From: an uncultured Shinella sp.
GTDB taxonomy: Bacteria > Pseudomonadota > Alphaproteobacteria > Rhizobiales > Rhizobiaceae
Length of the DNA: 5,349 bases
Direction of reading: 5' to 3'
Assembly (NCBI GenBank): GCA_946886325.1
Contig: CAMPIK010000216.1
Location: 1-5,349 of the forward strand
Each line of letters begins with the position of its first letter. The stretch's first letter is position 1. The notes beneath the pieces were generated by a model. It ran no database searches. It was not told the DNA's origin and saw nothing but the letters and a program-made list of their open reading frames with translations. The translations under genes and the position numbers were made by a program. This document shows, piece after piece, positions 88-5,349 of this stretch.

Positions 88-1364
<1,277 letters not shown>

Positions 1365-1369
1365 GAGAC

Positions 1370-3415
1370 TCAGACGGCCTCTGCGGTCCAGAGCCGGCGA
1401 TCGCGTTCGATCGGGGAGAAGTCGTCCCTCTGCGCAAGCTTTGCGATATAGCGGGCGCGGTAGGCCTCTTCGTCCTCGAACTCGATATTCTCCAGCACGA
1501 TCTCCGCGCCGATCTCGTAATAGACATCGAGATTGCGCAGATCGGGGACCGGGACTTCGCCGTTTTCGCCGTCCACCTGCATCTGCCAGTAGAGTTCCTC
1601 GAGACGCCGGGCGAGGGCCGGAATGTCGCGCAGCACGCTCGTTTCGCGCTGCTGCTGCAGGGACTTGCGGATGGCCGTGAGGCTGTCGCGGTCCTTTTCG
1701 AAGGCGATGGCGCGGGCGACATAGTCGTCGAGGCTGGCGCAATCGAGTTCCGGCACGCCGGCTGCCGCAATGATGCTGCCGCAGAAGCGCGAGGCGAAAC
1801 TCTTGCCCGACATCGTCAGGATCGGCAGGCCCATGGTGATCGCATCGGCCGCCGTCGAATGGGCGCCATAGGGGAATGTGTCGAGGAAGAGATCGGCAAG
1901 GCCGATCCGGGCGAGATGCGCCGGATTGGGCGCCTTGCCGGCAAAGATCAGCCGCTCGGGCGCCACGCCGCGCTTGGCGGCCAGGTCCCGCAGGCGCTGG
2001 TTGACATCGGCATCGCCGGCGAGCAACCAGAGCACGCTGCCGGGCGTCGCCGTCAGGATCTCCATCCAGCGGTCGAAGCATTTCGCGGTGATCTTCTGCA
2101 TGCCGTTGAAGCAGGCGAAGACGAAGGCGTCCTCCGGCAGGCCGGCTTCCGCGCGGGTCGGGCGCTCGGCGATCGGCCGCTTGCGGTCGAGCGGCTGGTT
2201 GCAGGCGATGCGCAGAACCTTTTCGGTGAAATAGATCTCGCTTTCCGGCGGCACGATATGGCCGTCGGCGATCATGTAGGGGTGGAAGGGGCTGCCCATC
2301 GATCCCGGATAGCCGCAGAAATTGACGGCGATCGGCGCCGGGCGATAGGCGAAAATCTTCGTGCGCGCGTGTTTGGTGTAGCCGTTGACGTCGATGAGGA
2401 CATCGATCCCGTCGGCCGAAATCTGCTTGGCGGCGTCGATGTCGCTGAGCGCGGTGATGTCGCGCCAAGAATCGACCGCGGCCCGTATCCGGTTCTGCGT
2501 CGTATCGAGCGGCCGCGTTTCGCCGGAATAGTAGGCGAAGACCTCGACGCTTGCCTTGTCGTGCAGTTCGAGAACCTCGCAGAGCGCAAAGCCGACGGCA
2601 TGTTCGCGAAGATCCGAGGAGACATAGCCGATGCGCAGGCGCTCGCCGGTGCCGGAAAGCTTGCGCGACGTCTTGCGCGGGAAATCCGAGAGATCGGGAC
2701 GGCCGACGAGCGTCTTGCAGTAGCGGTGGGCCTTGGCGAGCTGGAACATCGGGTCATCGGTGTAGCAGCCGAGCGTCAGCGGCGACATGGCGTCGAGAAG
2801 CTGGCGTGCGGACACATGTTCCGATGGCGTCAAGGTCGGCCATTTGCACTGGCGCTGGCGAAGCGCCGTCCAGTGCTGGCCCGCCTCGGTCTTGTCCGGC
2901 TGCAGTTCGATCGCCTGCCAGAGCGCAGCCTCCGCTTCGCCCATGCGGCCGGCGCCTTCGAGAACGCGGCCGATATGCTGCAGCGACATCAGCCGATGGC
3001 CGATCTTCTCCGGCGTGATATCGGACGTCGTCGCGACGAAATCGCGCCATTGCTGCACGGCCTGATCGATGAGGCCACAATCTTCGAGTGCACGGCCGAG
3101 GTTGATATAGGCAGGGCCGAAGCTGCCGTTGAGCTTCACGGCAGCGCGCAGCGCCTGGATGGCGCCCGGCCGGTCGCCGAGTTGCGTCAGCGTCACCGCA
3201 TAGTTGAAACTGGCGATGTGGAGCAGCGGATTGCCGTCGTTGAAGGCGATCCAGGTCTTGAAGAACTCCGCCGCCTGCGCCGTCTGCCCGGATTTGTTGA
3301 AGCTTTCCGTGATCTGGAAGAGTTCCACCAGCGACAGTTGTCCGGTCCGTATCCGCTCGAGCACGGCTGCAAGGGGCGAGGCGGGGGCGGAGGCATGAGC
3401 AACTTTGGCGAGCAT
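1370..3415 (-). CDS. TPR-containing GT41 glycosyltransferase (O-GlcNAc transferase/SPINDLY-like)
   Basis: This is a predicted cytoplasmic protein glycosyltransferase that would move a sugar from a UDP-sugar (in eukaryotic relatives GlcNAc, or fucose from GDP-fucose for SPY) to protein Ser/Thr. From the ATG at 3415 it has 681 residues. Residues about 35-180 contain roughly four TPR-like helix pairs (for example NYAVTLTQLGDRPGAIQALR and AYINLGRALEDCGLIDQAV), a typical acceptor-binding scaffold. The catalytic GT41 part starts near 259 with LRIGYVSSDLREHAVGF; His272 aligns with the OGT active-site histidine. It continues with DVLIDVNGYTKHAR (338-351), RPAPIAVNFCGYPGSMG (358-374), FNGMQKITAK (Lys441, the OGT nucleotide-binding lysine) and PYGAHSTAADAITMGLP (His519 and Asp524 match the OGT GHTT...D block). 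An acidic tail, about 617-681, follows the domain. Reading stays open upstream to a GTG at 3724, but that AT-rich stretch reads as non-coding and the ribosome site before ATG 3415 (GTGGGA) is only fair. The donor sugar and target are unknown; an Asn-specific HMW1C-like activity cannot be excluded but fits the motifs less well. Confidence 0.92.
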   Translation of the reverse strand: MLAKVAHASAPASPLAAVLERIRTGQLSLVELFQITESFNKSGQTAQAAEFFKTWIAFNDGNPLLHIASFNYAVTLTQLGDRPGAIQALRAAVKLNGSFGPAYINLGRALEDCGLIDQAVQQWRDFVATTSDITPEKIGHRLMSLQHIGRVLEGAGRMGEAEAALWQAIELQPDKTEAGQHWTALRQRQCKWPTLTPSEHVSARQLLDAMSPLTLGCYTDDPMFQLAKAHRYCKTLVGRPDLSDFPRKTSRKLSGTGERLRIGYVSSDLREHAVGFALCEVLELHDKASVEVFAYYSGETRPLDTTQNRIRAAVDSWRDITALSDIDAAKQISADGIDVLIDVNGYTKHARTKIFAYRPAPIAVNFCGYPGSMGSPFHPYMIADGHIVPPESEIYFTEKVLRIACNQPLDRKRPIAERPTRAEAGLPEDAFVFACFNGMQKITAKCFDRWMEILTATPGSVLWLLAGDADVNQRLRDLAAKRGVAPERLIFAGKAPNPAHLARIGLADLFLDTFPYGAHSTAADAITMGLPILTMSGKSFASRFCGSIIAAAGVPELDCASLDDYVARAIAFEKDRDSLTAIRKSLQQQRETSVLRDIPALARRLEELYWQMQVDGENGEVPVPDLRNLDVYYEIGAEIVLENIEFEDEEAYRARYIAKLAQRDDFSPIERDRRLWTAEAV

Positions 3416-3804
3416 GAGAATCCCACAGGCAGGCGGCCGCTGGCCGCAGTTGAAACCGGACGCAGTCGCGCCGCTTCCATGCTCTATCAGCCCTAGCTTG
3501 CCCTGGACTTGTCGTCCTTGGAGGGGTGCCGATTCTTTCTTGCAGGCGACGCGGGTGAATTTGGAAATTTCGGGTGGTTTCTGGGCGTTAACAAAAATCT
3601 TCTCTCGCCGGTGAGTCCTGTTCCGGAAAATACGGATGTGATTCGAGTCGAAAATAACTATTCTACAAGCATAAATCATATGTTGTTCGGGATAATCAAC
3701 CGGTAAAGTCGAATATCTAGCCACCGCCTATAGGTTATATCTTCATCGCAGTGATGCTTGTGGTGATGTTTGATCATCGGGAAGATAAAAAGAACAGTTT
3801 TGCA

Positions 3805-3816
3805 AACGTTAACGTT
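3805..3816. promoter_or_regulatory. 12-bp palindrome, candidate operator
   Basis: AACGTTAACGTT is a perfect palindrome, with near-symmetry extending outward (GCAA on the left, TGC on the right). It lies about 390 bp from the transferase start and 500 bp from the repeat-gene start. Its GTTAAC core recurs twice more in the same intergenic region. A dimeric regulator site is plausible; no regulator can be named. Confidence 0.35.
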
Positions 3817-3924
3817 GCGATTCCGCTGAGTCCGGTTGTTATGAATATACACCGGATATGAATTTGACGAATGTGAATTTTGACTTTTCGTGGGACAATA
3901 GAAAATCAAATGCGGTGTGTTACG

Positions 3925-3940
3925 TTAACCTAAAATTAGG
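3925..3940 (+). promoter_or_regulatory. CtrA-like half-site pair overlapping a small dyad
   Basis: TTAA (3925-3928), seven bases, then TTAG (3936-3939) matches the alphaproteobacterial CtrA pattern TTAA-N7-TTAA at 7 of 8 positions. The same bases contain an inverted repeat, CCTAA-AA-TTAGG (3929-3940). It sits close to the AT-rich/GC-rich boundary, about 375 bp upstream of the repeat gene. In an AT-rich stretch such a match can arise by chance, so this is only a candidate. Confidence 0.3.
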
Positions 3941-4001
3941 GACTGCGGCATAATTCTCTCGTCGGGGTCCAGCAGGCAAACGCATTGCAAATCAGCTCGA
4001 A

Positions 4002-4275
4002 AGCCGGCTCCCCGCAACCGTCCTGCCGTGGCAGGAGGGTGACACCGATTGGCGTAGGAATCAGGGCATCGCACGCCCTGGATGCATGATGCCTTCCAAC
4101 GCGCCGGCTTTTCGCAAGCCATGTTCCCAATCAAATCGTCGTCGTCCGTAAGGACTCCCAATGGCCGATGCCGCATGCGGCGTCCAACGGAGGGAAACGC
4201 CGCCACCAGGGGCAGGATGCACCAGGGGGCCAAGGCAGGGAGACCGGGGGTCTCTTTGCGGACCGGTGGCTGGCG
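4002..4275 (+). ncRNA. Candidate structured 5' leader of the repeat gene
   Basis: No protein is credible on either strand here. Read on the plus strand, many complementary segments occur: TCCTGCC/GGCAGGA (4021-4027 with 4030-4036), CAGGGC/GCCCTG (about 4062-4080), GGCTT/AAGCC (4106-4110 with 4116-4120), GTCC-GTAA-GGAC (4144-4155, a GNRA-type loop), GATGCCG/CGGCGTC (4167-4173 with 4178-4184, one G-U pair), GAGACC/GGTCTC (4240-4245 with 4249-4254), and a 10-bp helix CGCCGCCACC/GGTGGC-T-GGCG (4198-4207 with 4265-4275, one bulged base) that closes 40 bases before the ATG. The block CCCCGCAACCGT at 4010-4021 recalls the core of cobalamin riboswitches, but the other conserved parts are absent or poor, so I do not assign that class. 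A structured untranslated leader is the best reading; the RNA class is unknown. Confidence 0.4.
4237..4257 (+). other. Stable hairpin followed by a short T-run
   Basis: GAGACC (4240-4245), loop GGG, GGTCTC (4249-4254) makes a perfect 6-bp stem, extendable to 9 pairs in RNA by two G-U pairs and one A-U pair (4237-4239 with 4255-4257). Only three T residues follow the core stem. It could act as an attenuator or simply be one arm of the larger leader fold that encloses it. A strong intrinsic terminator is unlikely. Confidence 0.35.
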
Positions 4276-4304
4276 AGATGAAATTTGCAACGGCTAACTC
4301 CAAT

Positions 4305-4308
4305 AGGG
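4305..4308 (+). promoter_or_regulatory. Modest ribosome binding site of the repeat gene
   Basis: AGGG lies seven bases before the ATG at 4316. An in-frame TAG at 4304-4306 overlaps it, so no upstream in-frame start is possible. The site is weak, which leaves room for control by the folded leader upstream. Confidence 0.5.
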
Positions 4309-4315
4309 CGCGACC

Positions 4316-5349
4316 ATGACATCGATCATTTCTTCCCTGACCGTCACCCAAGTCCGGTCTCTTTCCACCACAGTCATCGCTTCTCTGACCACGGACGACG
4401 TGGCAGCCCTCAGCACCGCACAGGTCAAGGCGCTGTCGTCCTCGCAGATCGCGGCTCTCGAGACCGACGATATCGCGATCCTCACCACCGAGCAGCTCGG
4501 CGCGGTCACGACCGCCGGCATGAAGGGCCTGACGGTCGATCAGCTCGCGGTTCTGGAATCGGCACAGATCGCCAGCCTCGCCACCGGCCAGGTCGCGGCA
4601 CTCTCCTCCACCCAGATCGGCGCGCTGACCTCGGACCAGATCGACGTCCTGACGACCGCCCAGATCGGCGCCCTCAGCTCGGCCGCCCTCTCGGCGCTCA
4701 GCACCGATGAAATCGCCACCTTCTCCACCGCCGAAATCGCCGCCATCAGCACCAAGGCGCTGATGGGCCTTTCGACGGATAATGTCGCGGTCCTGTCGAC
4801 CGACCAGTTCGCAGCGCTCTCCACCGGCCAGATCGCGGCCATGAAGACGAACCAGATCGCCGTTCTGACGACCGATCAGGTTTCCGTCCTGACATCCGCC
4901 CAGGCAGGCGCGCTGACGGCCACGCAGATCGCGTCCCTCAGCACAGACAATGTCGCGGTTCTCACGACCGACCTGATTGCCGGGCTCAGCACCAAGGCGG
5001 TTGCCGCACTCACCACGGACCAGCTCAATGCCTTGACCTCCGACCAGGTCGAAGCACTGACCGCCGTCCAGATCGGCGCGATGACCTCCGCCGATCTCGC
5101 CGTCCTCTCCTCGGACGACATCGCCCTCTTCTCGACGGCTGAAGTCGCCGCCATCAGCGCCCGCGCCATCTCCGGCATTTCGACCGATGCTATGGCCGGC
5201 CTGACGACCGACCAGGTTGCCGTCCTCACGACCGCCCAGGTCACGGCGATGTCCACCGACCAGATCGCCGGCCTCTCGACTGATCAGATCGCCGTCATGA
5301 CCACCGGGCAGATCGGCGCCCTGACGTCCCAGCAGCTGGGCGCCATCGA
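4316..5349 (+). CDS. Octapeptide-repeat protein, Ser/Thr-rich, 3' end beyond the window
   Basis: I do not recognise a named family. The frame is open from the ATG to the window edge (344 codons plus two bases). After seven residues that already fit the register (MTSIISS), it consists of 42 octads without one insertion or deletion, consensus L-[ST]-T-D-Q-I-A-A. Position 1 is hydrophobic in all 42 (Leu in 32), position 2 is Ser/Thr in 38, position 3 is Ser/Thr in 37, position 5 is Gln in 25, and position 6 is a hydrophobic residue or Ala throughout. There is no Pro, Cys, His, Trp or Tyr; Phe occurs three times (136, 165, 272). Acidic residues outnumber basic ones. No signal peptide or membrane segment is visible, so export, if any, would need a C-terminal signal outside the window. 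The S/T-x-x-[QED] spacing resembles a helix capping box, so a stack of short helices is possible; a beta-solenoid is the alternative. The gene diverges from the GT41 transferase, which suggests it as a glycosylation target. It may be a surface adhesin or filament, but that is inference. Confidence 0.85.
   Translation, partial: MTSIISSLTVTQVRSLSTTVIASLTTDDVAALSTAQVKALSSSQIAALETDDIAILTTEQLGAVTTAGMKGLTVDQLAVLESAQIASLATGQVAALSSTQIGALTSDQIDVLTTAQIGALSSAALSALSTDEIATFSTAEIAAISTKALMGLSTDNVAVLSTDQFAALSTGQIAAMKTNQIAVLTTDQVSVLTSAQAGALTATQIASLSTDNVAVLTTDLIAGLSTKAVAALTTDQLNALTSDQVEALTAVQIGAMTSADLAVLSSDDIALFSTAEVAAISARAISGISTDAMAGLTTDQVAVLTTAQVTAMSTDQIAGLSTDQIAVMTTGQIGALTSQQLGAI
4337..5344 (+). repeat. Tandem 24-bp coding repeat, 42 copies
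   Basis: Each unit encodes one octapeptide, starting with the codon of residue 8. Copies differ a good deal in codon use (Leu as CTG, CTC or TTG; Thr as ACC, ACG or ACA), so the array is old and held by selection on protein sequence rather than recently expanded. Units 13-25 (4625-4936) and 30-42 (5033-5344) align at an offset of 17 units, 408 bp, sharing 60 of 104 residues and rare markers such as the FSTAE[IV]AA unit, the following Ile/basic unit and a Met-led unit. This points to an earlier block duplication. Confidence 0.9.

What the first reader, a model, noticed from the sequence alone, without database searches (positions are those of the whole stretch)
1370..5349. Possible dedicated pair: GT41 protein glycosyltransferase and Ser/Thr-repeat acceptor
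A TPR-GT41 enzyme with its key His, Lys and Asp positions intact is divergent from a protein with about two hydroxyl residues per octad in a regular array. TPR scaffolds in OGT bind extended or repetitive acceptors, and bacterial glycosyltransferases often sit beside the adhesin or flagellin they modify. The repeats could be glycosylated at positions 2 and 3, making a densely decorated filament or surface layer. The link rests on adjacency and composition only.
Basis: inference. Interest (0 to 1): 0.8.

Follow-up and report, generated by a model that had tools for sequence, protein, structure and literature searches.

The report
Glycosyltransferase paired with octapeptide-repeat protein
A soil bacterium carries an enzyme that probably puts sugars on one giant repetitive protein: across related bacteria the two genes stay together, often with enzymes that make the sugar, which suggests a dedicated and so far undescribed protein-decorating system.

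Summary
The window (Rhizobiaceae-like) carries glf (UDP-galactopyranose mutase), a TPR-GT41 enzyme (681 aa, start at 3415) and, divergent, the start of a PF20080 "ALTTAQ" octad-repeat protein cut by the window end. In 48 of 49 fetched loci with orthologues of this GT41 an ALTTAQ gene lies within 6 kb; the exception is a contig ending 177 bases before GT41. None of 44 other alphaproteobacterial GT41 loci has one. The partnered enzymes are one side of one tree branch (support 100). Of 297 order genomes, 13 of 13 with the orthologue have ALTTAQ, against 8 of 284 others. Nucleotide-sugar enzymes (Glf, GalE, UDP-glucose dehydrogenase, epimerases) lie near 38 of 49 partnered GT41s and 0 of 44 controls. 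AlphaFold2 (pLDDT 96) gives one short helix per octad: position 2 is the N-cap, position 3 starts the helix. Ser/Thr at position 2 is constant; at position 3 it is highest beside GT41, though not exclusive to such arrays. Best reading: a dedicated cytoplasmic O-glycosylation pair, acceptor most likely position 3 (position 4 also in some lineages), donor perhaps galactofuranose in Rhizobiaceae. Transfer, site, sugar and export are inferred. ALTTAQ itself is a known Pfam repeat.

The parts
88..1305 (-). glf, UDP-galactopyranose mutase, 405 aa (putative UDP-galactofuranose supply), next after GT41 on the same strand
   Evidence: PF03275 6.2e-78; TIGR00031 296 bits, just under its cut-off 303.75; Glf found in 31 of 34 Rhizobiaceae orthologue loci and 0 of 44 control GT41 loci
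1370..3415 (-). TPR-GT41 protein glycosyltransferase, 681 aa
   Evidence: PF13844 2.6e-70 and TPR models; XcOGT 2jlb 1.5e-75; start from relatives' lengths; in the ALTTAQ-linked group of the tree
3416..4315 (.). divergent intergenic region, AT-richer (GC 0.44 at 3501-4000)
   Evidence: composition; no Rfam family; regulatory elements not tested
4316..5349 (+). ALTTAQ octad-repeat protein, first 344 aa, cut by the window end; proposed acceptor
   Evidence: PF20080 1.5e-80; MTSI N-terminus shared with relatives; AlphaFold2 pLDDT 96.1

Best explanation
A dedicated protein O-glycosylation module. The TPR-GT41 enzyme acts in the cytoplasm on the neighbouring ALTTAQ protein, an array of about 100 to 440 octads (791 to about 3,500 aa in relatives) that folds as a continuous solenoid of one short helix per octad. 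The Ser/Thr at octad position 2 caps each helix; the hydroxyl at position 3 (helix N1), and position 4 (N2) in non-Rhizobiaceae lineages, is the main sugar acceptor, so sugars would repeat with the 8-residue period along the rod. The nucleotide sugar is supplied by genes nearby: Glf, with GalE in a third of the Rhizobiaceae loci (UDP-galactofuranose or UDP-galactose), and UDP-glucose dehydrogenase and/or an epimerase in 7 of 15 distant loci (perhaps a UDP-hexuronic acid). The glycosylated rod is then exported, possibly by type I secretion, and coats the cell or its surroundings. Shown here: the genes, their subfamily-specific linkage, the sugar-enzyme neighbours, the predicted fold and the position bias. 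Inferred: transfer, site, sugar, export and role.
For: (1) ALTTAQ within 6 kb of GT41 in 33 of 34 Rhizobiaceae loci, 12 of 12 order-level orthologues at 44-51% identity and 3 of 3 class-level ones at 42-49%, against 0 of 28 and 0 of 16 non-orthologous GT41 loci (distances; Fisher p=6e-26). (2) The partnered GT41s are one side of one branch, support 100. (3) Genome co-occurrence 13 of 13 versus 8 of 284 (order) and 4 of 4 versus 2 of 333 (class); the sampling centre G001 counts once in each. (4) Nucleotide-sugar enzymes near 38 of 49 partnered GT41s, 0 of 44 control GT41 loci, 0 of 14 unlinked ALTTAQ loci; GalE of L014 above its cut-off. (5) In G005 a second GT41 sits beside flagellins on another contig while the clade member sits with ALTTAQ. 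(6) Ser/Thr at position 3: median 0.85 next to GT41, 0.58 in unlinked paralogues, 0.05 in genomes without an orthologue; position 2 is 0.75, 0.76, 0.80; within-genome pairs n=10, Wilcoxon p=0.004 for position 3, 0.75 for position 2. (7) Model pLDDT 96.1; helices start at position 3.
Against: No biochemical data. High position-3 Ser/Thr is not exclusive: 96 database ALTTAQ proteins of unknown GT41 linkage have median 0.57, range 0.02-1.0, a quarter at or above 0.86. Linked arrays are related to each other, so those tests are not independent; G478 shows no position-3 difference and G011 little. G235 has a Ser/Thr-rich array (0.97/0.96) but no orthologue in its assembly; its array ends at a contig edge. 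Second GT41 genes outside the clade also lie near ALTTAQ: L002, L090 and L091 and G008, about 4 kb away, so the clade member may not be the only enzyme. 8 of the 15 distant loci and 3 of 34 Rhizobiaceae loci show no sugar enzyme by these queries, and the queries came from linked loci, which favours them. Seven linked loci lie among flagellar or chemotaxis genes, so flagellin could be a further substrate.
Confidence: 0.7

Rival explanations
1. The GT41 is a flagellin glycosyltransferase like FlmG; ALTTAQ is only a co-located, perhaps co-regulated, motility or surface protein.
For: Within the fetched flanks the module lies between flagellin genes in L005, L026, L031, L034 and between the chemotaxis operon and fliF in L013, L021, L033 (7 of 49). 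Outside the flanks, flagellins lie about 12 kb from the GT41 in G002 and G268. FlmG has a TPR domain and a GT-B domain and modifies flagellins (PMC7591256, start of abstract and two passages seen).
Against: ALTTAQ adjacency is 48 of 49. Flagellin itself is near 4 of 49 linked and 4 of 44 control GT41s (L071, L074, L105, L108), plus two controls with other genes of flagellar-cluster type (L085, L087, inferred from homology). In G005, G008 and G002 a second GT41 is the one beside flagellins; in G012 the second GT41's context was not seen. G076 has the module but no detected flagellin, 1 of 28 genomes.
Confidence: 0.13
2. The genes belong to a surface-polysaccharide locus: GT41 and Glf act in glycan assembly and ALTTAQ is the matrix protein that binds the glycan non-covalently.
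For: Glf and GalE are common in polysaccharide clusters (established knowledge); cluster c3 may be a glycosyltransferase with a galectin/CBM66-like insert; an MFS transporter (c18) recurs in 5 related loci.
Against: Among the 40 neighbours that I annotated no polysaccharide polymerase or flippase was seen, though many neighbours were not annotated; GT41 enzymes with tested function act on proteins (established knowledge: OGT, SPINDLY, NGT).
Confidence: 0.1
3. The TPR-GT41 protein is mainly a chaperone or secretion escort for the very long repeat protein, with glycosylation secondary or lost.
For: TPR domains bind proteins (established knowledge); the partner is huge; catalytic retention alone does not prove the role.
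Against: Catalytic positions conserved in the window's enzyme; sugar-donor genes nearby.
Confidence: 0.05

Closest known systems
FlmG of Caulobacter crescentus with its flagellins (PMC7591256: start of abstract and two passages seen)
   Same: Two-part enzyme, TPR domain plus GT-B glycosyltransferase domain, in an alphaproteobacterium; cytoplasmic O-glycosylation of a set of related proteins.
   Different: Proposed acceptor here is an ALTTAQ solenoid array, not flagellin; UDP-sugar enzymes lie nearby; the four flagellin-neighbouring control GT41s sampled here fall outside this clade.
HMW1C with the HMW1 adhesin of Haemophilus (PMC3012730: search listing and start of abstract seen)
   Same: GT41-type enzyme serving one large adhesin with many sites.
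   Different: HMW1 is modified at Asn in sequons; the window's enzyme is only distantly related to NGT (NF049992 23 bits against a cut-off of 1000); the array has 4 Asn in 344 residues.
Serine-rich-repeat adhesins with their own GtfA/B transferases (recalled, no call)
   Same: Ser/Thr-rich repeat protein glycosylated by enzymes encoded beside it.
   Different: Gram-positive, disordered repeats, different transferase families, accessory Sec export (all recalled).
PF20080 ALTTAQ-repeat proteins and the PDB entry 9zem HeliScrew4
   Same: Same octad repeat; 9zem matches at 1.6e-17, so the repeat type has one sequence relative of solved structure.
   Different: Many of the top 120 database ALTTAQ proteins carry calpain, RTX, matrixin or other domains; the eight GT41-linked ORFs whose two ends I read are repeat at both ends.

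Membership tests
Glycosyltransferase family 41 (OGT type) | PF13844 catalytic region with N-terminal TPRs | tested here: met
   PF13844 2.6e-70, TPR_14 1.1e-7, TPR_8 2e-7
Glycosyltransferase family 41 (OGT type) | Catalytic/UDP-binding His, Lys, Asp positions of OGT | tested here: met
   identical in alignments to XcOGT and human OGT: H375, K544, H622, D627 in the 784-aa numbering; roles of these residues recalled
Glycosyltransferase family 41 (OGT type) | Transfer of a sugar to protein Ser/Thr | not testable with these tools
   needs enzymology or mass spectrometry
HMW1C / N-glycosyltransferase (NGT) | NCBIfam equivalog NF049992 above cut-off | tested here: not met
   23.4 bits, cut-off 1000
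ALTTAQ repeat protein (PF20080) | Match over the curated cut-off, repeated | tested here: met
   265 bits, 13 stretches, cut-off 26.4
Dedicated glycosyltransferase-acceptor pair (FlmG-like, HMW1C-like) | Conserved subfamily-specific gene neighbourhood | tested here: met
   48 of 49 against 0 of 44; second GT41s outside the clade also lie near ALTTAQ in four genomes
Dedicated glycosyltransferase-acceptor pair (FlmG-like, HMW1C-like) | Modification of the partner, lost without the enzyme | not testable with these tools
   experiment needed
Flagellin glycosyltransferase (FlmG function) | Flagellin genes as the constant neighbour | tested here: not met
   flagellin in the fetched flank of 4 of 49 loci, che/fliF in 3 more; module present without detected flagellin in G076
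Type I secretion substrate | HlyB/HlyD genes beside the repeat protein | tested here: inconclusive
   present in 2 of 49 linked loci, L090 and L091; TIGR01843 above and TIGR01846 below cut-off
Known solenoid folds (armadillo-like) | Clear structural match in the PDB | tested here: inconclusive

The most novel reading that the evidence does not exclude
A protein O-galactofuranosylation (or galactosylation) system: a GT41 enzyme fed by its own GalE-Glf pathway decorates a helical-screw protein at a fixed position of every octad, giving a rigid rod with a sugar every 8 residues. In other lineages the same pair was re-tuned to hexuronic acid and to positions 3 and 4.
Probability: 0.3. Interest if true: 0.88.

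Novelty: new variant of a known kind. Interest (0 to 1): 0.72.

Why it matters
PF20080 proteins are widespread (548 database proteins at E<=0.001 among the 7,995 candidates scored) and no paper in the searched library holds the name ALTTAQ. Bacterial GT41 relatives are numerous (158 of 337 class genomes have a match to this protein, TPR-only matches included) and few have known substrates (recalled). A pairing of one GT41 clade with one repeat protein gives a testable substrate, a candidate site and a candidate sugar, and could show how a TPR transferase reads a periodic folded acceptor. Galactofuranose transfer by a GT41 enzyme, if found, would be a new donor for the family as far as I know (recalled).

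Tried and rejected
Chance neighbours: rejected by the control loci. RNA element in the window: no Rfam match at gathering cut-offs. An NGT-type enzyme: rejected. 'ALTTAQ proteins are a flagellar-cluster family': the 11 unlinked paralogue loci L118-L128 show no flagellar neighbours in a tblastn with genes of the 34 loci. 'High position-3 Ser/Thr occurs only with GT41': rejected as an exclusive rule. Search for the missing GT41 in G235 with a query from a distant orthologue found only a non-orthologue, 41% over residues 197-609. Literature: ALTTAQ 0 papers, HeliScrew 0; searches on GT41/flagellin, octapeptide solenoid, GT41 acceptor, galactofuranose and SPINDLY/Rhizobium listed nothing on this pair by title and start of abstract; their lists were capped at 10 or 20. 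Structure searches for a close fold of the repeat led nowhere. The c3 model is weak (pLDDT 65.6) and the matches listed are to its inserted beta-sandwich type. Not done: a Rhizobiaceae-wide genome co-occurrence sample; the Caulobacter vibrioides control genome rings for both families but I had no handle to read its loci.

Rows dropped and limits: of 120 database ALTTAQ proteins, 24 with fewer than 10 octads were left out. One double GT41 row of 1374 aa, L077, was left out of the tree, which held at most two GT41 rows per locus. In one search arrays with fewer than 15 octads were left out of the linked and unlinked groups and fewer than 6 of the no-orthologue group, so L110 (G246) gave no row. 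Of the GT41 matches, I fetched 40 and 19 loci (12 and 3 orthologues, 28 and 16 controls), taken down the ranking but not all; weaker matches were not fetched. Several control and linked stretches are cut by contig ends. The 0 of 44 does not count the second GT41 genes inside ALTTAQ loci (L002, L090, L091, G008), which are named under evidence against. Gene calls in the loci are my own ORF choices, not annotations.
Full report
What is there. The window holds three genes. glf (88-1305, minus) is a UDP-galactopyranose mutase (PF03275 6.2e-78; TIGR00031 296 bits, a little under its cut-off). The GT41 gene (1370-3415, minus, 681 aa) is a TPR plus Glyco_transf_41 protein whose catalytic positions match XcOGT and human OGT. 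The ORF listed from 3724 is about 100 codons too long, judged by relatives of mostly 678-685 aa. From 4316 on the plus strand runs an array of octads L-[ST]-[ST]-x-Q-[IV]-A-[AV], cut by the window end; 42 octads have Ser/Thr at position 2 in 38 and at position 3 in 37. It is Pfam PF20080, ALTTAQ repeat, 1.5e-80. In relatives the protein is 791 to about 3,500 aa and begins MTSI in most Rhizobiaceae. In eight ORFs whose first 200 and last 420 residues I read, both ends are repeat, with no other domain visible there and a short similar C-terminus. The window's GT41 is nearest to Sinorhizobium saheli, 78% identical.

Does the pair persist? A scan of GTDB contigs with the GT41 gave 34 loci. In 33 an ALTTAQ ORF lies within the fetched flank; the exception, L003, is a 5,655-base contig with GT41 starting at base 178, and its genome has strong ALTTAQ matches on other contigs. 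In 297 genomes of the order, 12 further near-full-length relatives at 44-51% identity were found; 12 of 12 have ALTTAQ directly upstream on the same strand. In 337 class genomes 3 more (42-49%) were found; 3 of 3 have it, one on both sides. As controls I fetched 28 order-level and 16 class-level GT41 loci outside this group: 0 of 44 have ALTTAQ. A tree of 99 GT41 sequences puts the 50 rows of the linked group, window and L003 included, on one side of one branch with support 100 (quick method, SH-aLRT, unrooted). Not counted in either group are second GT41 genes that fall outside the clade yet lie near ALTTAQ: in L002, L090 and L091 and in G008 (the G008 one was not in the tree). They may be helpers or serve other proteins.

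By genome, ALTTAQ occurs in 21 of 297 order genomes: 13 of 13 with the orthologue (the sampling centre G001 among them) and 8 of the other 284. Of those 8, seven have 1-5 matches each and one, G235, is strong. In the class sample it occurs in 6 of 337: 4 of 4 orthologue genomes (G001 again among them) and 2 of 333 others. Fisher p values are 1.2e-17, 2.8e-8 and, for adjacency, 6e-26; the loci are related, so these overstate independence, but the group spans different gene contexts.

What else travels with it. Sugar-nucleotide enzymes: Glf by tblastn in 31 of 34 Rhizobiaceae loci (30 by gene clustering), GalE in 11, and in the 15 distant loci an epimerase in 7 and UDP-glucose dehydrogenase in 3; together 38 of 49, against 0 of 44 control GT41 loci and 0 of 14 ALTTAQ loci away from GT41. 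The queries were taken from linked loci, which favours them. GalE in L014 passes the TIGR01179 cut-off; in L050 a nucleotide-sugar dehydrogenase (TIGR03026) follows GT41 within a few bases. A cluster seen in 17-18 of 34 loci (c3, about 420 aa) has Rossmann-like halves, a CDDD motif invariant in 14 sequences and an inserted sandwich resembling galectins and CBM66; a second glycosyltransferase is my guess at low confidence. A HlyB/HlyD pair lies between GT41 and ALTTAQ in L090 and L091 only, the sole hint on export.

Which residue. AlphaFold2 with 19 sequences gives pLDDT 96.1 and one short helix per octad; helix 26-30 covers positions 3-7. So position 2 is the N-cap, position 3 N1, position 4 N2. 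The solved protein 9zem, called HeliScrew4 and apparently designed, matches at 1.6e-17 with LTPEQ octads, often a proline at position 3. I counted Ser/Thr by position in octads found without using positions 2, 3, 4 or 8. Position 2 is alike in all groups (medians 0.75, 0.76, 0.80). Position 3 is 0.85 in 49 arrays nearest to GT41 (window plus 48 loci), 0.58 in 12 unlinked ORFs of 10 genomes that have the enzyme, and 0.05 in 9 arrays of genomes without an orthologue. Distant lineages use position 4 as well (mean 0.71 order, 0.82 class). Within 10 genomes the linked array is richer at position 3 in 9 (p=0.004) and not at position 2 (p=0.75). Against this: 96 database ALTTAQ proteins of unknown context have median 0.57 with a full spread, so position 3 hydroxyls are common anyway; six of the nine no-orthologue comparators are short stretches (6-20 octads) inside proteins of 2,500-3,900 aa (L109, L111-L115); and linked arrays share ancestry. 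L031, where GT41 and ALTTAQ are both in pieces, has the lowest Rhizobiaceae value (0.48), as decay would give.

Flagellin as rival. Within the fetched flanks the module is among flagellin genes in four Rhizobiaceae loci and between the chemotaxis operon and fliF in three, that is 7 of 49; flagellins also lie about 12 kb from the GT41 in G002 and G268. Among the 44 controls four have flagellin nearby and two more have genes of flagellar-cluster type, so this neighbourhood does not set the linked clade apart. Of the 13 genomes, four (G002, G005, G008, G012) have a second GT41 and G010 has many; in G002, G005 and G008 the second one is beside flagellins, in G012 its context was not seen. G076 has the module with no flagellin match (1 of 28). 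Caulobacter FlmG shows that a TPR glycosyltransferase can be dedicated to one protein family (PMC7591256, start of abstract and two passages).

Verdict. Functional pairing is close to certain (about 0.9), glycosylation of the repeats likely (0.7), position 3 as main site plausible (0.5), galactofuranose in Rhizobiaceae a bold but testable reading (0.3). The kind of system is known; this enzyme clade with this acceptor and this donor supply was not found described in the searches listed.

Noticed in passing
L014:13051-14304 and 16 other Rhizobiaceae loci (cluster c3): About 420-aa protein, often between GT41 and glf: Rossmann-like halves with an invariant CDDD motif and an inserted beta-sandwich like galectin/CBM66; for L034's copy Pfam calls only PF12248. 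Possibly a second glycosyltransferase of the module.
   Followed up: partly
L108 (G548), also L071, L074, L105: GT41 genes outside the ALTTAQ clade near flagellin genes; L108 has three GT41 matches followed by five flagellin matches.
   Followed up: no
L031 (Aliirhizobium terrae): GT41 split over two frames and ALTTAQ split into several ORFs: both partners of the pair appear to be decaying together, or the assembly is faulty here.
   Followed up: no
L109, L111, L112 (G237, G292, G253): Proteins of about 3,500-4,200 aa with a block of about 25 LTPEQ-type octads, mostly proline instead of Ser/Thr at position 3, in genomes where no match to a GT41 query was found; function unknown.
   Followed up: no
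PDB entry 9zem (HeliScrew4): A solved 120-aa protein made of the same octads; no paper in the searched library names it.
   Followed up: partly
L026: A MAG titled Rhodobacteraceae groups with Shinella in the GT41 tree and shares its flagellin-cluster context; its name is probably wrong.
   Followed up: no
L049:3927-8606: Large protein next to the module with formyltransferase, AMP-binding, luciferase-like monooxygenase and carrier domains, an unusual NRPS-like arrangement.
   Followed up: no
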